A stretch of DNA of 64,000 bases from NCBI GenBank assembly GCA_949358305.1, contig OX442314.1, positions 49,856,581 to 49,920,580 of the forward strand, written 5' to 3'. The notes under the pieces are model-generated. The model ran no database searches. It saw only the letters and a program-made list of their open reading frames with translations, and was not told the DNA's origin. The DNA comes from Strigamia acuminata. Lineage: Eukaryota; Arthropoda; Chilopoda; Geophilomorpha; Linotaeniidae. This document shows, piece after piece, positions 13,060 through 64,000 of this stretch. Position numbers and translations under genes: made by a program. Each line of letters starts with the position of its first letter. The first letter of the stretch is position 1.

Positions 13060-14972
13060 TGTGACGGTGACGACCACAACTCCCATTTAACAATGGTACC
13101 GGGAAGAGATCGCAATAAATAAACAGTGAATACAATACGAGATAAATACAAGACAGTTTATTGTTGGCAAACAATATGGATGAGCTAAATTATACATAGG
13201 ACTAATGCCGACATTTGGCAAGTTAAATCAGCTATTAAACTATACAAAGAATTGGCCAACTGGCCCTAGAATAATATCACTACGGGTCTGGAATATGGGA
13301 GCGGTTTCCCCATCGCTCGACCTGATTATAGATGTCATCTTAAGCCGGATGGCTGTGTCCTGGAGTCCGATACGGCTTCGCTGGTTTCCTTGGTTCGCTG
13401 TGTAAACTATCGCACGTCGATAAATCGAATGATCTGAGCATTGCGGTTGACTTTGTCTGCACCGCCACAACTTTGGGAGGATATTGGTGTAAGTAAATGT
13501 ATTCATTTACTTATCAATATTCCACTTATGAATTATATTTAATTCATATCGTTGTGAATTCTTATTTAGATATTTCGGGAATAAGTTGTCGTCAACTTAT
13601 CGGTTATATTGAGTTCAATATGAGATTAAGTCTTCTGACTTGATTTTGGTCCAACTGGTTGTCGAGTTTAAGTTTTTCTGTTATAAATAAAATGAAGATT
13701 AAGCTTCCCGTCGCAACACACAATTGCCATCGATTAGAATATACGCCTTGCCATGCAGAACGGTATCAAGCGTCCCCGGCGTCGCAGCACGGTCGTCCAT
13801 CTAGTGGTTGACGGTACCACGTACACAGGGGTCGATAGCTCGCGGCTCCGCACAGCAGTTTTATCTCTCGCGGTACTAATAATAGACCGACTGCTTTGGC
13901 ATCGAATACCATGAGAATCAGCTTGCCAAACACTTGGTGCTACTCGTGGTTACTGTAAAACAGACTGCTTTGGCACCATCAGGTGAAGGAACCGATTCTC
14001 AACAATACCGATGCTACTCGTGGTAACGGAATACGTTCATACCGAAAAAGACAACTTGGTCCTGTCCGGAGGATACTGAATTGCACAACGGCGGGTTCTC
14101 CTTCGGCGTCGCAACCGTAGACTGTAACATTTATGCAACATAATAATCCCAGCACTTCGACTTCAATTGCCGGCGGTGGCATGATTCTGTAGAATCATGC
14201 AACGGTTCTTTGCGAATAAATCAACAAAGAACCAAAAGGTTTTTTACGTGAACAACGAATCATATTTCTTAAGTAACAATACCAAACAGAAAATAATCAA
14301 ACAGAGCTGCGGAATGGCCGATTGTTTGGGTTTATATAACCTGACTGGATTTAAGGATTAATCCAGTCATCCAATTGGAACATGGGTTCCACGAATCCCT
14401 CCAATCCCGTATCACCGGAAGTGGATACGGAGGAGCATTTATGCAAATTATGCTAATCCTTGTTACAACCGGAACTGGATACCCAGGACCGGAAATGGGT
14501 TCCACCAATCAGATTGATCGGTTGACCGATTGATCGCTAAACATTCTGTCCCGCAGAAATGGAAGTTACATTGTATTTAACAATGTCAGATACTTAATAT
14601 ATATTTATATTAATATTTAACACAATTTATTCACTTGATTAAATATACGTTTATATTTAATCATGAGGTTTTCAAGTTCGTATTCGAATTTATCGCTAAT
14701 TGCGATCGCGCCATCTAGTGGCAATATGGAGCATTGACAAATGCGGGTTTTAGCAGACGAATCTTCGTAATTATGCCGTGATACTTTAGTATCATGTGGA
14801 AATTAGTGTTTATTCTTAATAAACGAACATCTTTGTATTTGAAACATCATAAATGACTTTATTCTAGACATTTATCAGTTTTACACAGAATATTGTAAAA
14901 ATACCATCATATTGGCGCAACAGCGCTTTCTTGATAGAAAATAGGCATTTATAGCCATTGTAAACCGTCATA
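13060..14972 (-). repeat. 3' LTR (1913 bp), hairpin-rich
   Basis: Same length as the copy at 20577-22489 and no difference seen by eye. It contains many perfect stem-loops: 13490-13513 (10 bp), 13527-13548 (9 bp), 13581-13600 (8 bp), 14179-14200 (9 bp), 14342-14369 (10 bp), 14594-14613 (8 bp) and 14636-14663 (12 bp). Many have 4-nt loops. Short ORFs inside are duplicated with the LTR and are not called. Confidence 0.9.
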
Positions 14973-20576: not shown

Positions 20577-22489
20577 TGTGACGGTGACGACCACAACTCC
20601 CATTTAACAATGGTACCGGGAAGAGATCGCAATAAATAAACAGTGAATACAATACGAGATAAATACAAGACAGTTTATTGTTGGCAAACAATATGGATGA
20701 GCTAAATTATACATAGGACTAATGCCGACATTTGGCAAGTTAAATCAGCTATTAAACTATACAAAGAATTGGCCAACTGGCCCTAGAATAATATCACTAC
20801 GGGTCTGGAATATGGGAGCGGTTTCCCCATCGCTCGACCTGATTATAGATGTCATCTTAAGCCGGATGGCTGTGTCCTGGAGTCCGATACGGCTTCGCTG
20901 GTTTCCTTGGTTCGCTGTGTAAACTATCGCACGTCGATAAATCGAATGATCTGAGCATTGCGGTTGACTTTGTCTGCACCGCCACAACTTTGGGAGGATA
21001 TTGGTGTAAGTAAATGTATTCATTTACTTATCAATATTCCACTTATGAATTATATTTAATTCATATCGTTGTGAATTCTTATTTAGATATTTCGGGAATA
21101 AGTTGTCGTCAACTTATCGGTTATATTGAGTTCAATATGAGATTAAGTCTTCTGACTTGATTTTGGTCCAACTGGTTGTCGAGTTTAAGTTTTTCTGTTA
21201 TAAATAAAATGAAGATTAAGCTTCCCGTCGCAACACACAATTGCCATCGATTAGAATATACGCCTTGCCATGCAGAACGGTATCAAGCGTCCCCGGCGTC
21301 GCAGCACGGTCGTCCATCTAGTGGTTGACGGTACCACGTACACAGGGGTCGATAGCTCGCGGCTCCGCACAGCAGTTTTATCTCTCGCGGTACTAATAAT
21401 AGACCGACTGCTTTGGCATCGAATACCATGAGAATCAGCTTGCCAAACACTTGGTGCTACTCGTGGTTACTGTAAAACAGACTGCTTTGGCACCATCAGG
21501 TGAAGGAACCGATTCTCAACAATACCGATGCTACTCGTGGTAACGGAATACGTTCATACCGAAAAAGACAACTTGGTCCTGTCCGGAGGATACTGAATTG
21601 CACAACGGCGGGTTCTCCTTCGGCGTCGCAACCGTAGACTGTAACATTTATGCAACATAATAATCCCAGCACTTCGACTTCAATTGCCGGCGGTGGCATG
21701 ATTCTGTAGAATCATGCAACGGTTCTTTGCGAATAAATCAACAAAGAACCAAAAGGTTTTTTACGTGAACAACGAATCATATTTCTTAAGTAACAATACC
21801 AAACAGAAAATAATCAAACAGAGCTGCGGAATGGCCGATTGTTTGGGTTTATATAACCTGACTGGATTTAAGGATTAATCCAGTCATCCAATTGGAACAT
21901 GGGTTCCACGAATCCCTCCAATCCCGTATCACCGGAAGTGGATACGGAGGAGCATTTATGCAAATTATGCTAATCCTTGTTACAACCGGAACTGGATACC
22001 CAGGACCGGAAATGGGTTCCACCAATCAGATTGATCGGTTGACCGATTGATCGCTAAACATTCTGTCCCGCAGAAATGGAAGTTACATTGTATTTAACAA
22101 TGTCAGATACTTAATATATATTTATATTAATATTTAACACAATTTATTCACTTGATTAAATATACGTTTATATTTAATCATGAGGTTTTCAAGTTCGTAT
22201 TCGAATTTATCGCTAATTGCGATCGCGCCATCTAGTGGCAATATGGAGCATTGACAAATGCGGGTTTTAGCAGACGAATCTTCGTAATTATGCCGTGATA
22301 CTTTAGTATCATGTGGAAATTAGTGTTTATTCTTAATAAACGAACATCTTTGTATTTGAAACATCATAAATGACTTTATTCTAGACATTTATCAGTTTTA
22401 CACAGAATATTGTAAAAATACCATCATATTGGCGCAACAGCGCTTTCTTGATAGAAAATAGGCATTTATAGCCATTGTAAACCGTCATA
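20577..22489 (-). repeat. 5' LTR (1913 bp)
   Basis: Partner of 13060-14972, the same length and apparently identical. On the minus strand transcription should start in this copy; the U3/R/U5 borders could not be assigned. Confidence 0.9.
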
Positions 22490-36894: not shown

Positions 36895-38697
36895 GCTTAA
36901 ACCTAAGACAAGCACCTTGCCTGAGGACCATGCTAAGTAACAACAATACAATTTAATATCCCTGTCACCCCCTGTAAGCTGTTTGGGGTGACGGATATAG
37001 ATAAATAAGCCAACTTATTTTCATTTTTTTTTTAAATTTGTCATTTACAAGGGGAGTGCACCAATAAGACTCTTCGGTCATGACCAAAATTTTTGAGGAA
37101 TTTATTTACCTCAAACTGGTAAATAAGCTGCCCAAATGTTTTTATGCCATGAACAGGCAGAAAGAAATAAATCAAACATTAAATTTGGACTCTTTCCAGG
37201 GTGATAGTACACTTTTGGGAGTAATTAGGCTTGTGGAGGAATATTGTAAACAACTGTTGTTAGGTAAAAAATAGTTCCAAGATGGAGGTTGAATTTTATC
37301 ATTTGACATTCAATGATGTCATTTCATCATTTGACATTCATCATTGAATGTCAAATGATAAAATTCAACCTCCATCTTGGAACTATTTTTTACCTAGCAA
37401 CAGTTGTTTACAATATTCCTCCACAAGCCTAATTACTCCCAAAAGTGTACTATCACCCTGGAAAGAGTCCAAATTTAATGTTTGATTTATTTCTTTCTGC
37501 CTGTTCATGGCATAAAAACATTTGGGCAGCTTATTTACCAGTTTGAGGTAAATAAATTCCTCACAAATTTTGGTCATGACCAAAGAGTCTTATTGGTGCA
37601 CTCCCCTTGTTAGTTCAATGAGTGTGATGAAAGGTTTTGTAGCATAAAGGGCAAGCCTTTAGATTTGTTTGACTTACAAGTTAGTAAGAGTCGCTGAAGA
37701 TTCAATGAGTGATGAAAATTGAAGTAGAAAAATATAAATTTAAAAGCTCGAGGAAATGCCACATTCATCGGGAAATGCGGGCTTACAATGCAATAACAAG
37801 TGCATGCTGCATGCATGTGAGAATGCAGTCTTACAGTACTCAACACAAACTTCTAATTCTACATTTGTAACATCCAAATTAAGTTGTTGGAGTAACAGCA
37901 CAAAAAACGTACAATTTTATGTGAAGAAATTGAGATGATAGAAGAATTTCACAGAAAATTAGCAATTGACCAGAGCTCGTTTTTGGTTCAATAAACAACA
38001 TTTAAAAAATCTCAAACCTTTCCAAAAATATTTTAAATTACTGCGCATTGGACTTCAAAATTGTCACGACAAATTTTTTAGAAATTTCTCTCGTTTTTAA
38101 CGAAAATAGAGCGTCGAGAAAACAAGAGCACCCGTCATAAATAATATTTCAAATTAAAACAAATTAATGAGGAAAAAAACCTTCGGGAATGCGACCAAAT
38201 CCGACACGGCGGCGTCACCAAAACACAGCTGCGAGAAGACAAGAGCACCGGTAATACAAATACTCGAGCTGAAATTGCAGAAAAGTAATACATTCATGCA
38301 AATTCACAAGAAAAAACCCATCCGAATACAACCAAATGCCGACGTGCCTCCAAAGTGCAAGTTCCGCCGTGACTGATCTCGTATTATAATAGTACGGGGT
38401 TTTAATTCGGTAAAACACGGACAACGAGTAATGATAGAAGCAATCTTCTAACTAATTAATCCTTTGGATTTAGGTTTTAGCATTTTCGATTTTCAACCAA
38501 TATATTTGTCATTGTTGCAAAAATGAATCTTCGAATTAATTTCATACTTTTTTGACAATCTAATCCATCGAGAATGCGAGCAAATCCAACCCGCCGATGT
38601 GCCTCCAATTTCGACGTGCTAGTGTCGTCGTGACGGTCATTGTATACGGGGTTTACATTCCGTAAAACACGGGCAGCCGTAATAAATGACAGAACAA
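36895..38697. mobile_element. Single-arm copy of the 1.65-kb foldback family
   Basis: This is collinear with the left arm at 1650-3090 (CCTAAGACAAGCACCTTGCC; AAGGGCAAGCCTTTAGATT; ATGCTGCATGCATGTGAGAA) and has one GTCACGAC unit near 38060. It is interrupted by the 562-bp foldback at 37048. Confidence 0.75.
37048..37609. mobile_element. Near-perfect foldback, 562 bp, TTA target duplication
   Basis: The whole element is two nearly identical inverted arms of about 250 bp with a short centre. The tips are CAAGGGGAGTGCACCAATAA and its complement. TTA flanks both sides (37045-37047, 37610-37612), and the related uninterrupted arm at about 1812 has a single TTA. A TTA duplication suits PIF/Harbinger-type elements. 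Each arm carries the same open 64-codon frame (37080-37274 plus, 37383-37577 minus), ending VEEYCKQLLLGKK. Confidence 0.85.
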
Positions 38698-39235: not shown

Positions 39236-40209
39236 CTGAAATAATAACGAGTCAAGGACATCGGCATACCATTTACGCCGGTGAAAAAGATTGAAACAAC
39301 ATTCTAAAAAATGTGATGTGAACCCCAAGAAAACAATTATTATAAGAGACACATTTTATTTAACTTTTAAATAACCAAATGTCTTACTTATTAATTCTAT
39401 AAATCTTATTTGTTTGATTGAAATTGAGAGATCAAATTGAAAATAAGCTGGTCTGTAAAGCCAGCTTGAGCTTAAAGCCTTGGAATTCTTTGTGAACAGT
39501 TATCTGGTTGCCCTTGGTGGGTGTTCCATGTTTACTCGGTCTTCGGGTGGGGCAATTGACTCTGGGCTGTTTGACTTTGACTTAAATCTTTAGGCTTTTT
39601 ATTCATATTTCAAGTTACAAGTTTTTTTTATTTTTATTTTTATTTTATATTTTAATTAGTTCTACTATTAAAGGTTTTAACGCCATTTGGAGTCTACGCG
39701 GAAGAAAGAAAATAGATATTTCTTCGTTATTTAATTTAATGAGTTAAATGTCATTGAGTTACAATATTTTCAATTAGTGTGATTCGTTGCTCCGGTTTTA
39801 AGATGAGTACATGTAAATGTGTTTAAATAAAAAAAAGTTGCCAGATGTCAATGAAACACGCTGTTCTGACTTCCAAATGAGATTCCGTCATAGATTAATA
39901 ACAATTAAATAAACTAATAAATAATTCAGCCACTTTTTAACTGATTTAAAATAAAAAGAATGTCTTTAAAATTACAATGAATTAACTATAAAATCGAAAA
40001 ATTCTAATTTGAACTTTTTCAAAACCGGACCTTGAACATTTCCAATTTTGAGATAAGACAATGTCACATTTTTTCCATTTCACTCAACTTCAAGTAATTA
40101 AGTTGCTAATTTAAATGCGTCCAGATCAAGGGTAATTTCCTCACAAGGCTTCCATGTGCTGCGGCTCTCAAACCAATGTGCTCAGGATAAACAACCTTGA
40201 TATAATTTG
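39236..40209. other. Intergenic DNA with a repeat fragment
   Basis: 39295-39400 matches the repeat near 34841-34900 (ACATTCTAAAAAATGTGATG, ATTATTATAAGAGACA). The remainder is AT-rich with no recognised content. The tandem duplication containing the next gene begins near 40081. Confidence 0.45.
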
Positions 40210-40217
40210 TATAAAAG
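40210..40217 (+). promoter_or_regulatory. TATA box of the first tandem cuticle gene
   Basis: TATAAAAG lies 68 bp before the ATG. An arthropod-type initiator-like ACAGTG follows about 30 bp downstream. The same arrangement precedes the second copy. Confidence 0.75.
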
Positions 40218-40277
40218 CGTTTGAGAATAGCTACAATTTCGTACAGTGCATATCAAGCTCTCCATACAATTTCAACT

Positions 40278-40943
40278 ATGAAATCCTTCGTAAGTCGGCA
40301 CAACAGCACAAAACCAACACATTCAGCCTAAAAACCTTTCTCTTCTTTTCAGATTTTCTTCTCTGCTCTCATTGCAGTCGCATACGGTGGCGTTCTTCTC
40401 ACCGGAAATGGAGTTCCCCTGGACACCCCAGAAGTAGCCCATGCAAGAGCCGCTCACTTTGCCGCCCATGCCGAAGCCACCGCCAGAAACGCCGGTGCTG
40501 CCGTTTACGGCGCTCCAGCCGTCGCTGCAACTCCGTTGGCCTATGCCGGCCCAGCCTACGCCCCAGCCTACGCCCCAGCTGTTGTTGCCGCTCCTCACAT
40601 TGCAACTTACGCCGCACCGGAATCTCTCACATACGCCGTCCCACCAGCATTCGGACTCCCAGTTGTCGACACCCCAGAAGTCGCTTCAGCCAAAGTTTAC
40701 CACGCCGCTGCCCACCACGAAGCCAAAGCACGCAATTTGTTGGGTTACCCAGTCGCTGCTACCGGTTACCTTGCCGACACACCCGACGTGTCTGCGGCCA
40801 AAGCGGCTCATGCTGCCAGTCGTCATGACGCCCTCGTCAGAAACTCGCCCATCTCGCCAATTGATGTATACGCTGGGCCATACGCTGGGGCATACGCTGC
40901 GCCATACGCTTATGGCCACCATCTCTTGAAGGCACATTATTAG
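40278..40943 (+). CDS. Alanine/valine/proline-rich cuticle protein, copy 1
   Basis: Two exons: 40278-40289 (ATGAAATCCTTC) and 40353-40943, with a 63-bp intron bearing GTAAGT and TTTTCAG. A four-codon first exon splitting the signal peptide is usual for insect cuticle genes. The 200-aa product starts MKSFIFFSALIAVAYGG (signal peptide). It has three copies of a DTPEV/DTPDV module followed by AxAxH, then A-rich helix-like stretches, and AYAPAYAPAVVAAP-type repeats in the middle. It ends HHLLKAHY. No Rebers-Riddiford domain is present, so it belongs with low-complexity structural cuticle proteins. It shares the DTPEVAxAK module with the minus-strand gene upstream, suggesting a local cluster. I infer expression in epidermis. 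Confidence 0.9.
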
Positions 40944-41144
40944 GAGTGGAGGAATTCATTCAGTAGTCAAAGTTTATTGTGGCTTTTCCAAGCTTATTGT
41001 TATTGTTATTGTCTTTGGGTGGATGGAAATCTTTACGCCTTGCCACTGGCTCTATTTTATTTGTATATAGATTTCTAAAACTTGTAAACTTTGATATGAA
41101 TATTGAATATTGAATATTGTATTGATTTATAATGTGAGAAAAGA

Positions 41145-41150
41145 AATAAA
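41145..41150 (+). terminator. Poly(A) signal, copy 1
   Basis: AATAAA about 200 bp after the stop codon, followed by a TGTG-containing stretch. Conserved in copy 2. Confidence 0.7.
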
Positions 41151-41250
41151 ACAACTCTGATGTGCATTTATTGGCGTTTCTGTCACTTTTTTTGTTATTT
41201 CCTCATTGTCTATTAATGACAATTAGAGTAATCAATTCAGAAATTTTTTT

Positions 41251-43585: not shown

Positions 43586-43722
43586 TTTTTCACTCAACTT
43601 CAAGTAATTAATAAAGTTGCTAATTTAAATGCGTCTAGATCAAGGGTAATTTCTCACAAGGCTTCCATGTGCTGCGGCTCTCAAACCAATGTGCTCAGGA
43701 TAAACAACCTTGATATATTTTG

Positions 43723-43730
43723 TATAAAAG
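43723..43730 (+). promoter_or_regulatory. TATA box of the second tandem cuticle gene
   Basis: TATAAAAG, 68 bp before the ATG as in copy 1. Confidence 0.75.
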
Positions 43731-43790
43731 CGTTTGAGGATAGCTACAATTTCGTACAGTGCATATCAAGCTCTCCATACAATTTCAACT

Positions 43791-44471
43791 ATGAAATCCT
43801 TCGTAAGTCGGCACAACAGCACAAAACCAACACATTCAGCCTAAAAACCTTTCTCTTCCTTTCAGATTTTCTTCTCTGCTCTCATTGCAGTCGCGTACGG
43901 TGGCGTTCTTCTCACCGGAAATGGAGTTCCCCTGGACACCCCAGAAGTAGCCCATGCAAGAGCCGCTCACTTTGCTGCCCATGCCGAAGCCACCGCCAGA
44001 AACGCCGGTGCTGCCGTTTACGGCGCTCCACCCGTCGCTGCAGCTCCGTTGGCCTATGCCGGCCCAGCCTACGCCCCAGCCTACGCCCCAGCCTACGCCC
44101 CAGCTGTTGTTGCCGCTCCTCACATTGCAACTTACGCCGCACCGGAATCTCTCACATACGCCGTCCCACCAGCATTCGGACTCCCAGTTGTCGACACCCC
44201 AGAAGTCGCTTCAGCCAAAGTTTACCACGCCGCTGCCCCCCACCACGAAGCCAAAGCACGCAATTTGTTGGGTTACCCAGTCGCTGCTACCGGTTACCTT
44301 GCCGACACACCCGACGTGTCTGCAGCCAAAGCGGCTCATGCTGCCAGTCATCATGACGCCCTCGTCAGAAATTCGCCCATCTCGCCAATTGATGTGTACG
44401 CTGGGCCATACGCTGGGCCATACGCAGCGCCATACGCTTACGGCCACCATCTCTTAAAGGCACATTATTAG
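43791..44471 (+). CDS. Alanine/valine/proline-rich cuticle protein, copy 2
   Basis: Exons 43791-43802 and 43866-44471 with a 63-bp intron. The 205-aa product differs from copy 1 by one extra AYAP unit in the central repeat, an added proline in AAPHHEAKA, and a few substitutions (such as SRHD to SHHD). Signal peptide, DTPEV modules and the C terminus are unchanged. Intact reading frame, promoter and poly(A) signal argue that both copies are under constraint or that the duplication is recent. Function as for copy 1: structural protein of the cuticle. Confidence 0.9.
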
Positions 44472-44672
44472 GAGTAGAGGAATTCATTCAGTAGTCAAAG
44501 TTTATTGTGGCTTTTCCAAGCTTATTGTTATTGTTATTGTCTTTGGGTGGATGGAAATCTTTACGCCTTGCCACTGGCTCTATTTTATTTGTATATAGAT
44601 TTCTAAAACTTGTAAACTTTGATATGAATATTGAATATTGAATATTGTATTGATTTATAATGTGAGAAAAGA

Positions 44673-44678
44673 AATAAA
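44673..44678 (+). terminator. Poly(A) signal, copy 2
   Basis: AATAAA in the duplicated 3' flank. Confidence 0.7.
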
Positions 44679-44770
44679 ACAACTCTGATGTGCATTTATT
44701 GGCGTTTCTGTCACTTTTTTTGTTATTTCCTCATTATCTATTAATGACAGATAGAGTAATCAATTCAGAA

Positions 44771-46600
44771 AGAGATCTTTCTTGGAAAGCAGCTTGAAGA
44801 AATCCAAAATGGGAGGGTTTTGCCTTTCATTTTCTTTTTAGCCGCTCCAGGAAGTGAGGAGTAAATTTTCTACTCACTCATTTCATGTGGAAGGAAAATA
44901 TGAGAACCCTTGTAGAAAAATAAAAACTCAGTTGTTTATTCATGGTCAAAGAGTAAATCCTTATTTCGAACAACAACTTTTAACATGGAGAAAAATCAAT
45001 TAGCAACTGCCACTAATTACTTCTTTGCATAACAACAGATAATTCATATTAAATGCAATAAATCAACATTGTAAACATTTCTTAAGTGCAACACTCATTG
45101 AAATTCAAATAACACACACAAAATCTTTGCACTAAAAGTAATTGAATTCAAAACACATTAAGAGCAGACAGCTTAAAATTCAACCAATGGGAGCAAAGCA
45201 TTTGTTCATGCCTGAAATGACAGAGGAGAAAGACTCTTTAATAAATACAAATAAGAAATTAATGCATTACAAAATCCAAACTTATCAACTAACCATGCAA
45301 AGGTAAGAATTCCTTAATAAACATTTATATTTAAATCCCATCAGCATTCAAGGACCGCACCCAAACAAGATGGCTTCCCGTCAACTAGCAACAGGAGCTA
45401 GGAGGGTGAAAAAAAGGATAAAACGGTCACAAATAGCTGCTGCCAGGACTCCAGGGATCTCCCACGACAGGTAGGACACCTAAATAAAGTCAAATGAGCA
45501 CAAATGACAGCTTGAGCCTTTGCAGATCACACCCAGGACCCGCCACAACTCGTACGCACGTTGCGCACGCCAAGGTGAACGCAACTGCACCTCCAATGCC
45601 GAAAACGGGCGTTTTGGCAAGGCCATGAGTCCCCCACGCACCCAGCAGCTGCCCAGGAGATAAAATAAGGTAACTAAACTGTAAAAACGCATTGAATGCA
45701 TCCCCCTGCGATATTAACTGTTTCTTCTTTTCCAGTTCACTTTTGAAGCAACCCATGCTTCGAACTCATCATTCAGCCCACATAAGTGAACTAGAAATGG
45801 AACAACACTCAGAAACAGGTGAAACAACACAAAACATTGGAAAACAACAGTAAAAATTAACAAAACTTGAATTTGACATTCCAAGAGAGATTAAACTACA
45901 TGACAAGCATTGTCCCCACTGAGATTGGCACACAAAAGGACCTGGAAAATGCCACTTACAGCAGAAAAAGATCAGATATGTGCTAAATAAACAACCTAAT
46001 TTTAAGAATGAAATAAAAAACCCTTTTTTGCATTTTCAGAGAACTAATGTAAATTGCAATCAATTTGTCCAGGGATTGAGTGAACTCTTCCTTCCATTAT
46101 GGTGCTCTGAACACTGATATGATTTGTTCTGTCAAACTGATTTGACTCACTTCTGAATAAACGTCAGGCAGCGACGTTTGAGCTATTGCAGCGACAATTG
46201 AAAAATGGATTCCAACATTTATTTCACCTCACCAACAGCCAAAACCCAACATGTTTTACATCATCAAATAGTTAAAATCATCTAGTTAGTAAGACTAACA
46301 TTTTTATCTGTGATTTAGTAATACCGTATTCATCCGCTTGTATGTCTACTTGACTTAGGTTTCTGCTTAAGATCAAGACCTAGTTTCAGGAAGAAGTGGG
46401 TGATGTGTTTATATATTTTTTCCTCTTCGCTTATTTTCTCTCCGTTTTATCCTATTTGTTTTTATTTCATTTATTTCTATTTAATTTTCTTTCTCCACAG
46501 ATTGCAACGAAAGAAGAATAAGGGAAGGAGTTGGCGCTGAAGATGCTGTGTCTAGAGCTTAAAATGCTCCTCATGACCCTTGAAAATAAGCCAGTAGGCA
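44771..46600. other. Intergenic DNA, less repeat-rich
   Basis: No family-level similarity was recognised. A splice-site-bearing segment at 45370-45840 is listed separately. A pyrimidine-rich stretch at 46420-46500 ends in CTTTCTCCACAG, a strong acceptor-like site. Confidence 0.4.
45370..45628 (+). other. Possible short spliced ORF with strong splice signals
   Basis: ATGGCTTCCCGTC at 45370 opens a frame to a donor at 45471 (CGACAG|GTAGG). Acceptor TTTGCAG at 45519-45525 continues the frame to TGA at 45626-45628, about 67 residues rich in Arg, Ala and Pro. The second exon ends with AAG|GTAACT at 45670, and a polypyrimidine acceptor TTTCTTCTTTTCCAG lies at 45721-45735. The stop lies before the last junction and no homology is recognised, so this may be a noncoding transcript or chance. 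Confidence 0.2.
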
Positions 46601-53499: not shown

Positions 53500-53971
53500 G
53501 TCGAGGGAATGGCGACCGGGTCGTGCGCAGGCTTGTGCGTGCACCTGTGTAGTGTTACGGCAGAGAAAAACGTTGTTGAGTCGTTCGGAAACGTCGAGTG
53601 TTTGTTCGTACCTAGTTTGTCGGTGCGGTCGAGTTGTTTTCCCGACGAGTTCGTCCAAAGCTCGTCCGCATCGTTTCACTTTATGCCGCCATGTTGGCCA
53701 TTAGCAAATGCCCGATTTAAATTTCGTGTTTGAGAAACCACCATTTGCATTTTTGAGCAAACAATCAAATCAATCAGCATGGCAACGTGGCAACAATACG
53801 CTCTAAGGTAAAACAATCACAACTATTGCACCGAATAAGATATAATACACCCAAAAACGTCTTAGCAACGTGTAGGAATGAAGTTTTCGTATATAACATA
53901 GAGGAGAATGTCGTACATAGCCATTATCATCCAGAGCGATTCGTAGACAGTCGATCTTTTCGTACATTGCG
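53500..53971. promoter_or_regulatory. Shared intergenic region of a divergent gene pair
   Basis: 472 bp separate the preferred start of the minus-strand ORF from the ATG of the plus-strand gene. It is GC-rich to about 53690, then AT-rich. No TATA box is convincing. It could be a bidirectional promoter. Confidence 0.35.
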
Positions 53972-54670
53972 ATGTCGCGAATTTATATCGGCGGATTGGC
54001 GCGCGACGTTTGCAATAGAGACATTGAGGATTTCTTGAAGGGATTCGAAATCCACGAAATTTATCTTCGGATTGGCTTTGCTTTCGTGCAATTGGCCAAT
54101 AATCGAGAGGCCGACGACGCTGTTTCCTACTTGAATGGCCGCAAGTTGCTCGGTCAACCGGCGTCGGTGCAACATGCCCGAAGTCGTGGAAACGAGAGGG
54201 AGAATAAACCACGCAGATTCGATTCGAGGGATGGTCGTGGATTGGGTCATTTAGATTCTGCTCGTGATTTTCGGGAGAAATTCCGAGTTCGTGTGGAGAA
54301 TTTGGCGGATAGTATCGGTTGGCGGGAGTTGAGGGAATACATGTCGCAAGTTGGGGAGGTTCTTTACGCGGATGCGCACACGGTTCGGAGAAATGAAGGT
54401 GTGGTTGATTTCGGGTCGGAGTGGGAGCGGGAAAAGGCGATTGAAAGTTTCCACAATACTGAATTGCATTATCGCTATGTGAGGTTAATTAAACCTGATG
54501 TTCGGAGAAGCCGTGACGATTCGAGATCTCCATCAGTCACGAATTGTTCAGAAAGATCGCACAGATCCAGGTCTCCGATTAAATCGTTTCGCTCGAGATC
54601 GAGATCACCCGTTAATTCATACCGCATTCTATCAGCTGGGAAATCGAGCTCTCCCATTAAAAATTACTGA
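53972..54670 (+). CDS. SR-type splicing factor, two RRMs, intronless (SRSF4/5/6-like)
   Basis: The 232-aa product has RRM1 with RNP2 IYIGGL (residues 4-9) and RNP1 GFAFVQL (35-41). A basic linker follows, then a second, pseudo-RRM from about residue 103 (FRVRVENL, WRELREYMSQVGEVLYADAH, EGVVDF), the layout of B52/SRp55-type SR proteins. The C terminus has a short RS region (SRSPIKSFRSRSRSP). Such proteins bind exonic enhancers and recruit the spliceosome in the nucleus. The canonical SWQDLKD of RRM2 is changed to IGWRELRE, the spacer is not glycine-rich and the RS tail is short. The absence of introns suggests a retrocopy. The frame is fully open, and AATAAA lies at 54743-54748, so it may be expressed. 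Confidence 0.85.
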   Translation: MSRIYIGGLARDVCNRDIEDFLKGFEIHEIYLRIGFAFVQLANNREADDAVSYLNGRKLLGQPASVQHARSRGNERENKPRRFDSRDGRGLGHLDSARDFREKFRVRVENLADSIGWRELREYMSQVGEVLYADAHTVRRNEGVVDFGSEWEREKAIESFHNTELHYRYVRLIKPDVRRSRDDSRSPSVTNCSERSHRSRSPIKSFRSRSRSPVNSYRILSAGKSSSPIKNY

Positions 54671-58150: not shown

Positions 58151-58776
58151 CCACGTGGAGGTAGAGAGTTGGATTTTACACCCCCTTAAGAAATAAACCT
58201 TTGCAAACAGTGCTGAAAACCACGTGAACAAATCATGTGAACAAATTTAACAAATCTAAAAATAAAAATTCCAATGTAGAGTAAACAATTTTTTTTAAAA
58301 AAAGAAAATAGGTTTTTAACATAACTGCCAATTAAAATTTTTGTCTCGTCATTTGTGTTCTTATTGTTGCACCCAGTCTGGTCACTTAAAAACTCATTTA
58401 TTGACACACACCAGAGAAAAACAATTCAAATGTCATTTGTGTTTGTTTTCTTCTGCCTATTACAGTAGCTTCAAGACACATTTATTGACACACACCTGAG
58501 AAAGACCATTTTAACAAATTTAAAAAGAAAAATACCAATGTACGGTAAACAATTTTCTTTTTAAAAAAAAAAAAATAGGTTCTGAACATGATAACTGTCA
58601 AGTTAAAAATAAAATAAAAATAAATGAATAAAAAAATCTGCTAAAAGCATTTGGTAGCCATGGATATTATTTAGTTGTATTTATGATGTTTTGAGTGTAT
58701 TGTTCTAACACCAGAGTGTGAAAATGTATAATCTATTTTTAGACCTGTGAGAGGATGTAACAACTGTAAATTGAAA
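58151..58776 (+). pseudogene. C2H2 zinc-finger remnant, copy A
   Basis: The frame around 58342-58500 reads CSYCCTQSGHLKTHLLTHT, then FKCHLCLFSSAYYSSFKTHL with LTHT, giving two C2H2 fingers joined by a REKQ linker. A TGA follows the second finger where the linker glycine should be. The upstream flank (58151-58340) is duplicated at 62830-63020. Such fingers bind DNA. As only two remain, with a stop, this copy looks dead. Confidence 0.65.
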
Positions 58777-59490
58777 TAAAACATACATTAATAAAATATA
58801 AAACAAGACACAATATTACCCAAATAATATTGTGTTTTGCAGCAAGTTTTGGCCCAGCAACAGCGTCAACCAATCGCGCTGCAGCGTGCATTGCTTTGAT
58901 GATGCTGCTAGGCGTGTGCCTGGGCGGAGCATCCCTTCCCCTCGCGCGTGCCCGGCTCAATTGTTGCACACGACCCGAAGGCGGCCGTGTGTGATCTTTG
59001 TGCAACTCGTCATCTGCGCAGCTTTTCTGAGCAGATTTAGAAGTGAGCTAAACGGTTTTGGCCCACTCTTCCCGCACTCTTGATTCCACCTCCAAACTGT
59101 TCACAACCGTGTCAAACTTCTGCCAAAACTGCAAAGTGTGATCTGTGATTCTTGGACGAATTGAGTTTCATTGCTGGTCTGTACCAACTGTACAGAATAG
59201 CGCCTTCCTGCTTGAATTACTACGTGTAATTTAAGCCATTTCTGTGTGTGAATTGACATTGAGCTTGCTCTGTCAATTTGAAGGCTTTGTGTCGAGTTTA
59301 ACTCCACAAAGCGATCTGTGTTAAGACGGATTGTTACGTCGAGCTTGCTCCGTAATAATCGAACCGCTGTGTGCAAGACATATTCTCGTGTTGAGCTTGC
59401 TCCGCGAGGATTTTTAGTATATTCAGCAACGTATTTTAGCGTTGAGTTTACTCCGCTAAAATCCCGCGCTCACACGACGCCATCGACGCC
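58777..59490. repeat. Hairpin-rich element, copy 1
   Basis: About 690 bp appears identical to 63313-64000 (which is cut by the window end). It begins with ACACAATATTA/TAATATTGTGT (11-bp perfect stem) at about 58808. It includes CTGCGCAG/CTGAGCAG, TCTGTAC-CAACT-GTACAGA and CTTGAATTAC/GTAATTTAAG stems, and ends with the five-hairpin array. Short ORFs on both strands are copied along and are not called. It may be an LTR-like or SINE-like unit; no ends with target duplication were found. Confidence 0.75.
59251..59462 (+). other. Array of five stem-loops with a common cap
   Basis: Stem-loops at 59251-59278, 59284-59312, 59330-59359, 59383-59410 and 59433-59462. The lower stems are AATTGACA, GCTTTGTG, ATTGTTACG, TTCTCGTG and ATTTTAGCG, each paired with its own complement; the third has one mismatch and the fourth uses G-T pairs. 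Each encloses T(T/C)-GAG-(CTTG, TTTA or TTTAA)-CTC. The function is unknown; the pattern suggests a folded RNA or a hairpin-generating DNA process. Confidence 0.85.
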
Positions 59491-59933
59491 ATTTTGGAGC
59501 CAACGGTCAACTGTGAGTGTCCAAGTACAAAGAGAAGCCAGATCGACCCAGTCATTACATTATTATTATTATTTCCCCTTTGCATATATCCAGTGTATTT
59601 AGAACGATTAAAACAATCTAATTTTTCCTTTTACTCTCCGTGTAAAAATCATTCCCCTAGACAACCATTTAGCCACAGAGTAGAAGTCCTGTACGGCATC
59701 TCACCGACGATTGCTTATTGAATTTATATAATTTAATAAGTAAAAACCCGGATCGCCGCAAGAGAAATCAAGAAGTGTTTTATTTCAACCCAGAATTGTG
59801 ATGATATGTGGAACTTTTGTGTAACAGTAACAACAACGATTTCACACGAACACACGCGCAGAGAAGACAAGAACTGCTGTCAAGTTAGTTTAACATGCAA
59901 TGTATCAAATCGGTGTCTATGTACCAAAGATTA
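59491..59933. other. Flank of the hairpin element, nothing further recognised
   Basis: A further inverted repeat CTTATTGAATT/AATTTAATAAG lies near 59715. The stretch 59740-59810 has the look of an LTR end, but no partner is present. Confidence 0.35.
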
Positions 59934-61488
59934 GGGGGTTTCATTAATTAAGCAATTTTGTAATTTTGCAACTTTAGCAATTTTGCACTTTTGGATTTGT
60001 CACATGATATCAGTTCCACCAATCATGTGCATAATTGCAAAAACACAAAACAGAAAAAATACACAATCACAAAATCAAAGGTAGTTTTGCTATTTTGGCA
60101 AAAATGGCAGCAGCCAAACTCAATCCAAGTGGCCATCACAAATTGTGATTAATAATTAGTTTCAAAAACAATCTCATAATTTTGCAATTTTGCAATTATT
60201 TAAATAGTCACGTGACTTCCTATCCACCATATCAGGTTATAGTTATATCCAACCAATTTTAAAATGTGATGCAAAAAAACTAGTTCTTATTTGTGTGATG
60301 GAACAAAATATTTTTTAATAAGGTGCATTTTAATAAATACTAGCTGTTCACCCACAAAGCCAAAGCCATAGATCAGACAAATGTATACAACCAAATCATA
60401 AAATAAATTTTTGCAAAACTAAACCAAACCCATAATAATGCAACCCAAACCCAAACCACACCAAACCAAAACCAATGCCAATCTGGCCAATACCCAAACA
60501 CAATCAAACCCAAAAGTTAACCTAAACCCAACGCCAATCCAGCCAATTCAATTTTGACCCAAACCACTGCAACCTGCTATTTTGTCCTCCTTTATTATTC
60601 AACCATTTTTTCCAACTTTTTCTTATAAATCAACCCAAAAAAGATCGTTTTTTTCCAAAATTTAAAATCAACGGTTAATCCGATCAAAAAGTTATCTGTA
60701 CCATCGTTTTCAGCGGGATTTTCTTCTCTGGAAACCTGTTTTAAACATTTCATTCGGTTAATTTTACGAATTTTTGGTTTTGTCATGGTCGAATCTCGAA
60801 TCCAAATTCTGCACCAAATTTCCAAATTTTCCCATTCGGTCCCCCGCTAAGATGGCCCGAATCGGCACTTTTCCTCGCCCGAATCAAAAAATAAAAAATA
60901 CAGGCTCGTGCAGAATTGTCTCCTCTTCAAAATGAGCTTGGTTCCATAATTTTCCGAGCTCATCTTGACATAGAAAACAATAAAAAACGATACGCGACGA
61001 ACATTTCCGCCTGAATTTCCATTCGGGCACCCGCTAAAATCGCCCTGAATCGCCCTGAATCGGTACTTTTTTTTACCCGAATCGAAGTATTGAGTTTCCT
61101 AGCTGTTATACAGTCATGGATGCATCAGCATTTTGATGATATACAAGGATACAAGTTGGCCACTTAGATAGAGCTTGGATGCCTCCATTTTGTTTTGAGT
61201 TTCACAAGCCTCAAAACCACTTCTTATCAAAATCACAAAAACTACCTTTTAGATGTTTTTGGGATTTTGTGTTTTTACTCTTTTGTGCTTTAGTGAATGT
61301 GAATGTGATTGGTAGAACAGATATCACATGACAATACTCAAAAATCACAAAATTGTCCAGATCACACAATTGCAAAATTGACTGGGTTAATTCAATGTAA
61401 ACTCATTTTTGGAGGCATCAAAAAATAATGATTTTGTGATTAATGCAAAATCACAAAATTGCAAAATCATTCATATAATGAAACCCCC
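59934..61488. mobile_element. TA-flanked terminal-inverted-repeat element, 1.56 kb
   Basis: The ends GGGGGTTTCATTA and AATGAAACCCCC are flanked by TA on each side. The subterminal regions repeat CAAAATTGCAAAAT-type words in inverted orientation. An interior block (about 60340-61100) is rich in CCCAAACC words and has no transposase ORF. Another sequence starting TACTAGCTGTTCACCC near 60340 may be a nested insertion. Confidence 0.7.
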
Positions 61489-61681
61489 TACTATCTCCTA
61501 ACTGGCAGATATTGCGTGATACAGGATGGTAATTTGTAACAATTATGCTGTTTTTAGTTTTTTTTAATTTTCATATGTATTTATTTATTTGTAGTTAGTA
61601 CACCACTCATAACATAATTTTTATTCACCATAAAATGACTGTAAATTTATCTTTAAAAACAATTTATTGTCTTTACTACAG
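61489..61681. other. Putative intron 5' of the EB-module exons
   Basis: AT-rich, ending in TGTCTTTACTACAG. Confidence 0.35.
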
Positions 61682-62345
61682 ACAAAATTCGCAGGCTGTT
61701 GGAACATGCATGGAACACTCCGAATGTAGTCAGATTTATTCAAGGTGTTTCAATAACGAATGCAGTTGCATTGAAGGTTACTACGCACTGGATAATGTGC
61801 GTGTATTGAATACCGGTAAGTTACAATATAGAAAATATAAGTTTGATACATTCTGAATAAGCAATGAACATTTTCAGGAACGATAGGCAACAGATGTGAA
61901 ATGCTAAGGGAGATGCAAGGGGCATTTTACATATTGCAATGAAAACAAGACGTGCCAGTGCATTACTGGGACCATACAGGCGAGGCAAGGCTGTAACTCT
62001 GAAGGTGAGGAGCCAACTTTTAAGTTATTGAAGGAAATATATGGAATTATTTATAAACTTATTTTTTTTTATACCAGAAAGGATAGGAAGTAGGAGATTT
62101 TGTTCCAGAAACATGGACGTATTACTCACTTGCTTGAAAAAAACATCGATAACGGAGTTATTCAATGTAGTGGAGCAATTCATACAAAAAGTTTCAGGTA
62201 AAACTTTTTTCTCAGTCTTTTTTTTTCCGTCAGCTCGTGTCATTGACCAGATAATGATAAAGATTTATTTCATTTTATATGGTGAAGACAACTGTGAATA
62301 TACCGAAGAGTGTGGCCACAAACCGGATTCACTTCTTTATTCTTA
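61682..62345 (+). pseudogene. EB-module (cysteine-rich extracellular) gene relic
   Basis: At least three exons with good splice sites: 61682-61815 (acceptor TTTACTACAG, donor ACCG|GTAAGT), 61878-62004 (TTTTCAG; GAAG|GTGAGG) and 62078-62197 (ATACCAG; TTTCAG|GTAAAA). A possible fourth starts near 62234. Exon 1 reads GTCMEHSECSQIYSRC, FNNECSCIEGYY, the EB pattern. Exon 2 has GNRCEMLRE, and in another frame CKGHFTYCNENKTCQC, so about one base has been gained or lost near 61920; read straight through it hits a stop. The last part has NCEYTEECGHK. EB modules occur in secreted or membrane proteins of arthropods and nematodes. No signal peptide exon was found. Confidence 0.6.
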
Positions 62346-62614
62346 AAGTGTTCATTAAATTAAGAAAATTTAAATTGAGAAAAGCTTAGTTATTATTGTT
62401 TTACTGTATAAGTCTTAGATTAAGCATCCGCGATCTTAGTTTTATATTAGCGAAACCGGGATTGCGACACTTGAGGGCCTGTTAGATTTGAACCAACTAT
62501 AAAAATTTATTATTGTGTACAATTTTTACGGGACTCTCATCTTTCTTACTGTTTCTTTCTTCCATTTTTGTAAAAAATGCCGAGAAGAAAGAGCCACATC
62601 CCAGTGCGAAAATA
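62346..62614. other. Intergenic DNA
   Basis: No gene or repeat recognised. Confidence 0.4.
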
Positions 62615-62622
62615 CCGACAAG

Positions 62623-62814
62623 CAGGGGCGGATCTAGCTTTTCGAGGGCCCGGGGCTTTGAGGTTTTTTCGGGCCCCTTTATCGAAATTTGTAATAGCGA
62701 CCTTTCTCCTTTTTTCTTTTCTTTAGCGACCTTTCTTTTTCTTTTTTTTTTTAGTACATTGCCTTGCGTCTTGGGGGCTCAAGCCCCATTAGCCCTACGC
62801 TAGATCCGCCCCTG
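62623..62814. mobile_element. hAT-type MITE, 192 bp, 8-bp target duplication
   Basis: The ends CAGGGGCGGATCTAGC and GCTAGATCCGCCCCTG are perfect inverted repeats. CCGACAAG is duplicated at 62615-62622 and 62815-62822. Confidence 0.9.
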
Positions 62815-62822
62815 CCGACAAG

Positions 62823-63312
62823 ACAGTCAGCCACGTGGAGGTAGAGAGTTAGATTTTACATCCCCTTAAGAAATCAAACATTGCAAACAGTGCAGAAAAC
62901 CACGTGAACAAGTCATGTGAACAAATTTAACAAATCTAAAAATAAAAATTCCAATGTAGAGTAAACAATTTTTTTAAAAAAAAGAAAATAGGTTTTTAAC
63001 ATAACTGCCAATTAAAATTTGTCTCGTCATTTGTGTTCTTATTGCTGCACCCAGTCTGGTCACTTAAAAGCTCATTTATTGACACACACTTCTGTCTGTA
63101 ACAGTAGCCTCAAGACACATTTATTAACACACACCAGAGAACGACCATTCAAGTGTGATTTATGTTCTTATTGCTCTACCCAGTCGTCGCACTTGAAATC
63201 TCATTTGTTGACCCACGCCGGAGACAACAAAAACTTGAGTTCTTATTTTATAAAAATACCCCTAGACACATTTTACAGGCAACAGAGTTTAAGGCCTATA
63301 AACGGCATTTCA
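62823..63312 (+). pseudogene. C2H2 zinc-finger remnant, copy B
   Basis: The frame from ATG at 63019 reads CSYCCTQSGHLKAHLLTHT, then a collapsed finger (SVCNSSLKTHLLTHT, lacking its first cysteine half), then CDLCSYCSTQSSHLKSHLLT with HAGD. Compared with copy A, the second finger has lost part of its sequence and a third is retained. The frame ends in unrelated sequence. The 190-bp 5' flank matches copy A. An array with near-identical fingers is normal for lineage-specific zinc-finger families. Confidence 0.65.
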
Positions 63313-64000
63313 TACATTAATAAAATATAAAACAAGACACAATATTACCCAAATAATATTGTGTTTTGCAGCAAGTTTTGGCCCAGCAACAGCGTCAACC
63401 AATCGCGCTGCAGCGTGCATTGCTTTGATGATGCTGCTAGGCGTGTGCCTGGGCGGAGCATCCCTTCCCCTCGCGCGTGCCCGGCTCAATTGTTGCACAC
63501 GACCCGAAGGCGGCCGTGTGTGATCTTTGTGCAACTCGTCATCTGCGCAGCTTTTCTGAGCAGATTTAGAAGTGAGCTAAACGGTTTTGGCCCACTCTTC
63601 CCGCACTCTTGATTCCACCTCCAAACTGTTCACAACCGTGTCAAACTTCTGCCAAAACTGCAAAGTGTGATCTGTGATTCTTGGACGAATTGAGTTTCAT
63701 TGCTGGTCTGTACCAACTGTACAGAATAGCGCCTTCCTGCTTGAATTACTACGTGTAATTTAAGCCATTTCTGTGTGTGAATTGACATTGAGCTTGCTCT
63801 GTCAATTTGAAGGCTTTGTGTCGAGTTTAACTCCACAAAGCGATCTGTGTTAAGACGGATTGTTACGTCGAGCTTGCTCCGTAATAATCGAACCGCTGTG
63901 TGCAAGACATATTCTCGTGTTGAGCTTGCTCCGCGAGGATTTTTAGTATATTCAGCAACGTATTTTAGCGTTGAGTTTACTCCGCTAAAATCCCGCGCTC
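63313..64000. repeat. Hairpin-rich element, copy 2 (runs off the window)
   Basis: Appears identical to 58784-59471 as far as it goes. Confidence 0.85.
63780..63991 (+). other. Array of five stem-loops with a common cap, second copy
   Basis: Same five stem-loops as 59251-59462, shifted by 4529 bp, with no base change noticed. Confidence 0.85.

What the first reader, a model, noticed from the sequence alone, without database searches (positions are those of the whole stretch)
59251..59462. Five consecutive stem-loops: one invariant cap on five unrelated, fully paired stems
Seen directly: lower stems AATTGACA, GCTTTGTG, ATTGTTACG, TTCTCGTG and ATTTTAGCG are each followed by T(T/C)GAG(C/T)TT(G/A)CTC (one has an extra A) and then their own complement. 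The cap can pair GAG/CTC around CTTG or TTTA, leaving a 5' TT/TC bulge. Five different stems that all pair, one through G-T pairs, are what an RNA with covarying helices would show; alternatively a hairpin-copying DNA process stamped a cap into five sites. I know of no named element with this design.
Basis: partly seen in the sequence, partly recalled or inferred. Interest (0 to 1): 0.9.

Follow-up and report, generated by a model that had tools for sequence, protein, structure and literature searches.

The report
Covarying hairpin array in retrotransposon LTR
The five hairpins are real: they look like an RNA structure kept by selection inside the long terminal repeat of a young, multi-copy Ty3/gypsy retrotransposon, like a row of identical protein-docking knobs whose binding partner is not yet known.

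Summary
Window 59249-59462 holds five hairpins (8-10 bp stems) with one cap, U-Y bulge + GAG(Y)UU(R)CUC. The array lies at +579 to +791 of a 1088-bp LTR of a Ty3/gypsy retrotransposon; its 3' flank occurs at 252 places in this genome.

In 89 LTRs, non-Watson-Crick stem cells are 273 G-U against 4 A-C (variant types 14 v 3), pointing to plus-strand RNA rather than a DNA palindrome. Arrays hold 2-7 hairpins. A sister family (67-68% RT identity) with like LTR ends and PBS has no such array.

Function is inferred: a multivalent cis-acting RNA docking site (Gag/packaging first; host factor or TAR-like transactivation as rivals). Bulge and cap fit the arginine-sandwich determinants published for HIV TAR and 7SK; this is untested, and the sister Gag is equally basic. 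Limited Rfam and paper searches found no such design.

The parts
58761..59760 (+). 5'-truncated LTR copy (full LTR 1088 bp in L011, TGTGGTGACC...GGATCGCCGCA) of a Ty3/gypsy retrotransposon; its 3' flank equals that of the neighbouring element's 3' LTR
59210..59236 (+). separate hairpin with another loop, just 5' of the array; a counterpart exists in the sister family
59249..59280 (+). hairpin H1, bulge UU, cap GAGCUUGCUC
59284..59312 (+). hairpin H2, bulge UC, cap GAGUUUAACUC (extra A)
59329..59360 (+). hairpin H3, bulge UC, cap GAGCUUGCUC
59382..59411 (+). hairpin H4, bulge UU, cap GAGCUUGCUC, two U-G pairs in the stem
59433..59462 (+). hairpin H5, bulge UU, cap GAGUUUACUC
63311..64000 (+). 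second LTR copy (5'-truncated, cut by the window end), hairpins at 63780-63991; beyond the window it is followed by the PBS and the gag and pol frames

Best explanation
The array is a cis-acting RNA element in the transcript of a recently active Ty3/gypsy LTR retrotransposon. Shown: the hairpins are in the LTR, stem changes keep pairing and do so in the way expected of plus-strand RNA, and the cap (U-bulge, GAG/CUC, tiny loop) is nearly invariant. Inferred: each cap is one binding site for the same protein, the stems only hold it up, and the tandem array gives multivalent binding. My first choice for the protein is the element's own Gag (the long N-terminal part with basic stretches, or the CCHC zinc knuckle), so that the array works as a packaging/assembly signal. 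Layered estimate: RNA structure under selection about 0.93; protein-docking array about 0.7; Gag/packaging in particular about 0.4.
For: 22 of 40 scored copies form 11 same-strand pairs 11.0-13.2 kb apart; LTR ends, PPT and PBS; Retrotrans_gag, CCHC, RVT_1, RNase H and integrase matches. Pattern of two caps: 346 places, reversed control 0. A4 (35 distinct arrays out of 47 records tried: 4 lacked five hairpins, 8 were identical): 99.8% of 2180 cells paired, 7 pairs and 53 cells changed on both sides, 0 of 500 shuffles reach the cell count, the paired fraction or the score, slid controls 0-1 pairs. Spacers vary about twice as much as stems (0.126 v 0.058 pairwise). 89 LTRs: 273 G-U v 4 A-C cells; variant types 14 v 3 (p 0.013), shared by more than one LTR 10 v 1 (p 0.012). 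First bulge base U in 488 of 488 hairpins, not a selection criterion. The array is inside the LTR, so it is in the genomic RNA at one end or both (inference from how LTRs are transcribed). In Ty1, Ty3 and HIV-1 the dimerisation and packaging signals sit in the structured 5' end (PMC11381356, passages).
Against: No protein-binding, RNA or packaging data. The sister family, whose Gag has basic stretches at like places, has no cap array, so this element type does not need one. The U3/R/U5 borders are unresolved. The double changes are few events inherited by many copies, in part between repeat units (H1a/H1b, H2a/H2b). In one search the number of changed pairs is reached by 16 of 500 shuffles, and the number of further pair types (20) is below the shuffled mean (23). 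221 of the 273 G-U cells come from three fixed pairs. The LTR part upstream of the array is nearly as conserved as the hairpins among 11 LTRs (12% v 7% variable sites; downstream 28%). In the minimum-energy fold of the whole 301-nt region H3 is not formed.
Confidence: 0.42

Rival explanations
1. TAR-like transactivation or elongation array: each bulge-cap is an arginine-sandwich motif that recruits an arginine-rich protein (host HEXIM/P-TEFb type, or the element's own) to the nascent RNA.
For: Purine before the bulge 488/488, first bulge base U 488/488, A-U as second pair above the bulge 488/488, first pair G-C in 486/488 (from the tallies): the positions that form the sandwich in TAR (A22, U23, G26, A27-U38, G28) and 7SK (A39, U40, A43-U66) in PMC6189040 (passages). 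Basic stretches in Gag.
Against: The TAR hexaloop is absent, no Tat-like gene was recognised among the frames searched, no TAR hit in Rfam to E 5 and E 10, the sister Gag is equally basic without the array, start site unknown.
Confidence: 0.17
2. Host-protein docking array for RNA export, stability or cap-independent translation of the unspliced RNA, as constitutive transport elements or IRESs do (recalled analogies).
For: Same covariation and invariant cap; about 300 nt of LTR lie between the array and the PBS.
Against: No Rfam element matches above its gathering score; position relative to the start site unknown.
Confidence: 0.22
3. A DNA process (template switching or quasi-palindrome correction) copies one arm onto the other and stamps a cap; no RNA function.
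For: Double changes and perfect arms could arise in one step; the array grows and shrinks.
Against: G-U pairs are fixed in many copies while A-C is rare (273 v 4 cells; 10 v 1 shared types); arm copying would erase both. Forms with G-U at covarying places exist (L260 H1b; H2b CACAAAGG).
Confidence: 0.05
4. Neutral tandem repeat: the hairpins are similar only because copies are young and related.
For: LTR mates differ by 0-2 substitutions in about 650-700 bp in 29 of 35 compared pairs (the other 6 comparisons were unusable); most stem pairs never vary.
Against: Stems and spacers share one history, yet spacers vary twice as much and double changes fall on partner columns.
Confidence: 0.04

Closest known systems
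HIV-1 TAR and 7SK arginine-sandwich motifs
   Same: short U-containing bulge, purine below it, G-C then A-U then G-C above it as in TAR; LTR location as for TAR (recalled)
   Different: UU or UUA loop instead of the hexaloop; 2-7 copies in tandem; no Tat recognised; Ty3/gypsy element
Retroviral packaging (psi) stem-loops and the Ty1/Ty3 5' structured region
   Same: several hairpins in LTR-derived RNA of a retroelement, Gag with one CCHC knuckle
   Different: here one cap is repeated on every hairpin; Gag binding not shown; the array may not be in the 5' leader
MS2-type coat-protein hairpin arrays used as RNA tags (recalled, no call)
   Same: repeated bulged hairpins with one cap
   Different: natural, in an LTR, partner unknown, stems covary

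Membership tests
Ty3/gypsy (Metaviridae) LTR retrotransposon, as carrier | LTRs, PBS, PPT, gag, and pol in the order RT-RNase H-integrase | tested here: met
   no tree was built, so the clade within the superfamily is not tested
HIV TAR (Rfam family recalled) | match to a covariance model | tested here: not met
   Searches (E to 5; E to 10): each gave two sub-threshold hits to other families, none to TAR
Arginine sandwich motif | bulge pyrimidine with a partner pair above and a paired nucleotide directly before the bulge | tested here: met
   by sequence only, 488 hairpins in 98 records (9 of them duplicate places); definition from PMC6189040 (passages); caps were selected with at most 1 mismatch, the bulge was not selected
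Arginine sandwich motif | formation of the triple and intercalation of an arginine | not testable with these tools
   needs structure or binding data
Retroviral/Ty packaging signal | Gag-dependent packaging of RNA that holds the element | not testable with these tools
   no experiment
Retroviral/Ty packaging signal | location in the 5' leader of genomic RNA | tested here: inconclusive
   TATAA +55 and AATAAA +103 would put it in U5; the sister lacks that part and has AATAAA at +788 and +819
Known Rfam RNA family | match at the gathering score | tested here: not met

The most novel reading that the evidence does not exclude
A retrotransposon has evolved, independently of lentiviruses, a tandem array of TAR/7SK-like arginine-sandwich hairpins in its LTR, and uses it as a multivalent dock for an arginine-rich protein (its own Gag or host HEXIM/P-TEFb).
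Probability: 0.15. Interest if true: 0.85.

Novelty: new variant of a known kind. Interest (0 to 1): 0.6.

Why it matters
Even for yeast Ty3 the packaging sequences are not precisely defined (PMC11381356, passage), and I found no packaging element of an animal Ty3/gypsy element in the searches made. A repeated, covariation-backed hairpin with an invariant cap in a young, multi-copy family gives a small RNA bait that can be tested directly, and would be a natural example of multivalent RNA docking.

Tried and rejected
Rfam at relaxed thresholds: two sub-threshold hits to unrelated families in each call. Covariance model R1 was built but this genome cannot be searched with one, so it was not used. 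Search of 571 aa of the third frame for homologues: none at E 0.001 among 7995 scored candidates. Coupling of Gag basic stretches with the array: not supported, the sister Gag has them too. Placing U3/R/U5 from TATA, AATAAA and Inr-like motifs: inconclusive. L262 (70% RT identity) showed no PBS of this type and was not used as sister evidence. Papers: searches found none; others (3 listed; 20 of 70 listed; 15 of 1,133 listed) gave titles and abstract starts only, none about such an array; none of the 15 listed holds any of the four array phrases. Subscription papers and preprints are not held. Passages only were read in PMC4974528, PMC6189040 and PMC11381356. DNA-cruciform and small-RNA-precursor readings were dropped: the first for the G-U/A-C asymmetry, the second because stems of 8-10 bp are short for Dicer/Drosha (general knowledge).

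Full report
What is there. The five hairpins are at 59249-59462 as described. Each folds alone into stem, 2-nt 5' bulge, GAG/CUC cap (a fourth C-G or U-A pair is possible) and a tiny loop, with energies of -9.7 to -11.7 kcal/mol, z -2.4 to -5.2. The 301-nt region folds better than all 100 shuffles, z -3.5, though in its minimum-energy fold H3 is not formed. Caps of this form in unrelated sequence rarely sit on stems: of 302 in 120 viral loci the longest stem at this register is 4 bp; over bulges of 0-3 nt, 8 of 302 reach 5 bp or more.

Where it is. A DNA search of the window's own genome (237.5 Mb, 157 contigs) gave 40 scored matches out of 271 candidates; 22 of the 40 form 11 same-strand pairs 11.0-13.2 kb apart. 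Comparing fetched copies gave an LTR of 1088 bp, TGTGGTGACC...GGATCGCCGCA, preceded by AAAAGGGGGGGAAG (taken as PPT) and followed in 5' copies by CTTGGGGGCCCGTCCGGGAT. The last resembles the tRNA-Pro primer site of murine leukaemia virus (recalled, not tested). Pfam finds Retrotrans_gag, CCHC, RVT_1, RNase H and integrase in this order along the pieces: Ty3/gypsy. The pol frame of the element beside the window has in-frame stops; many other copies show open frames of about 1500 codons. The window copy at 59200 is a 5'-truncated LTR that shares its 3' flank with L011, the 3' LTR of the next element; the second copy at 63311 starts that element. A pattern just 3' of the array occurs at 252 places with up to 3 mismatches, control 0 (the 100 listed are all without mismatch). 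In 29 of 35 LTR-pair comparisons the mates differ by 0-2 substitutions over about 650-700 bp (16 by none); 6 comparisons could not be used because of offset or flanks. So the family is young. Of the differences between mates, five fall in hairpins: three keep pairing and two do not (H4 of L231/L232, cap of L253/L254), as expected if selection ends after insertion.

Covariation. Two caps 16-46 nt apart: 346 matches, reversed control 0; the rows listed (about 100 of 346) are all this array by eye. Diverged copies show 2 to 7 hairpins (98 records: 90 with five, 4 with seven, 1 with four, 3 with two). Compensated changes: H1 AATTGACA/TGTCAATT v AACTAACA/TGTTAGTT; H2 GCTTTGTG/CACAAAGC v TCTTTGTG/CACAAAGA; H5 TTTTAGCG/CGCTAAAA v TTTTGGCG/CGCCAAAA v TTTTGGCA/TGCCAAAA; the cap's fourth pair C-G v U-A. 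Forms with G-U at such places are seen for H1 and H2, and one with A-C for H5 (L219/L220). On 35 distinct five-hairpin arrays (47 records tried, 4 without five hairpins, 8 identical), 99.8% of 2180 cells pair; 7 pairs and 53 cells change on both sides; 0 of 500 shuffles reach the cell count, the paired fraction or the covariation score, 16 of 500 reach the number of pairs, and the number of further pair types (20) is below the shuffled mean (23); slid structures give 0-1 pairs. The tool warns that related sequences can exceed shuffles without structure; the slid controls keep relatedness. The first set of 13 closer copies gave one double change, reached by 46 of 500 shuffles. Independent events are fewer than cells: H1a/H1b and H2a/H2b sit side by side in seven-hairpin arrays, so their differences are at least partly between repeat units. 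Pairwise difference is 0.058 in stems, 0.041 in cap and loop, 0.196 in the bulge (its second base varies) and 0.126 in spacers. Among 11 LTRs, 11 of 148 hairpin sites vary against 24 of 79 spacer sites, 84 of 296 sites downstream and 52 of 440 upstream, so the upstream LTR is nearly as conserved as the hairpins.

Strand. In 89 LTR records (9 of 98 dropped as the same place) the 443 hairpins have 3544 stem cells: 3266 Watson-Crick, 273 G-U, 4 A-C, 1 other; 221 of the G-U cells come from three fixed pairs. Variant types: 14 G-U v 3 A-C (p 0.013); shared by more than one LTR 10 v 1 (p 0.012). Hairpins were admitted only with at least 5 of 8 pairs (G-U counted as paired) and at most 1 cap mismatch, which raises the paired fraction; a single A-C would not exclude a hairpin. 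The asymmetry points to selection on plus-strand RNA and against arm copying in DNA.

Cap. In 488 hairpins of 98 records (9 duplicate places included): bulge UC 314, UU 162, UA 12; first base U in all. GAG/CUC intact in 486. The nucleotide before the bulge is always a purine (G 384, A 104), paired in 487. Published arginine sandwiches use a bulge pyrimidine bound to a pair above it and the paired base before the bulge; in TAR these are U23, A27-U38 and A22 with G26 and G28 as arginine contacts, in 7SK pseudo-ASM3 U40, A43-U66 and A39 (PMC6189040, passages). The array's motif has these by sequence. This is a lead and not a demonstration.

Sister family. RT search gave 103 scored matches out of 3640 candidates: 83 nearly full-length at 98-100%, 5 partial at 96-99%, and 15 at 67-70%. 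Sister LTRs (L261, L263, RT 67% and 68%, 92.6% alike) have like ends and PBS and a counterpart of the 59210-59236 hairpin, but a G+C-rich unrelated stretch where the array would be. L264 (RT 69%) has the same PBS type; its LTR start was not determined. No cap with up to 2 mismatches sits on a stem of 5 bp or more in L261, L263 or L264. So the array is a gain in this family or a loss in the sister. Sister Gag (L265) carries basic stretches at similar places, which removes one possible support for Gag recognition.

Position in the RNA. The array is at +579 to +791 of the LTR. TATAA at +55 and AATAAA at +103 would make it U5, but the sister lacks that part and has AATAAA at +788/+819. Wherever R lies, LTR sequence is present in the genomic RNA at one end or both (general knowledge).

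Verdict. A real hairpin array in an LTR with good evidence of selection on RNA pairing. Multivalent protein docking is the kind of function I find best supported; Gag/packaging is my first choice, host export/translation and TAR-like transactivation are rivals. No Rfam family matched at its gathering score and no paper seen in the listings describes it.

Noticed in passing
L031:1048-2850 (beyond the window, same element): Third open frame of about 600 codons, serine/arginine-rich in part, no Pfam match; 571 aa of it found no homologue at E 0.001 among 7995 scored candidates.
   Followed up: partly
L029:59-3004: Gag open frame of 982 codons with a long part before the Retrotrans_gag domain (664-749) and basic stretches near 391 and 553.
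   Followed up: partly
window 59932-61490: About 1.56-kb insert with imperfect inverted ends (TAGGGGGTTTCAT..ATGAAACCCCCTA) in the 3' flank of the window LTR; the homologous flank of L011 lacks it. Looks like a DNA transposon or MITE.
   Followed up: no
window 58151-63149: Sequence upstream of both window LTRs is itself duplicated (95% over 261 bp), so the two LTR copies seem to lie in a local duplication.
   Followed up: no
window 13060-14972 and 20577-22489: 1913-bp direct repeats, 100% identical, 7.5 kb apart, with related repeats next to them; possibly another young element or duplication.
   Followed up: no
window 37047-37610: A 564-bp stretch that matches its own reverse complement at 97%: a large palindrome.
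   Followed up: no
window 40078-41243 and 43588-44771: Duplication (97%) that includes an alanine-rich cuticle-like open frame; the copy tested has no Pfam match.
   Followed up: no
window 53921-54667: Frame with RRM domains and an SR-like tail, and a weak sub-threshold match to the histone hairpin-binding domain.
   Followed up: no
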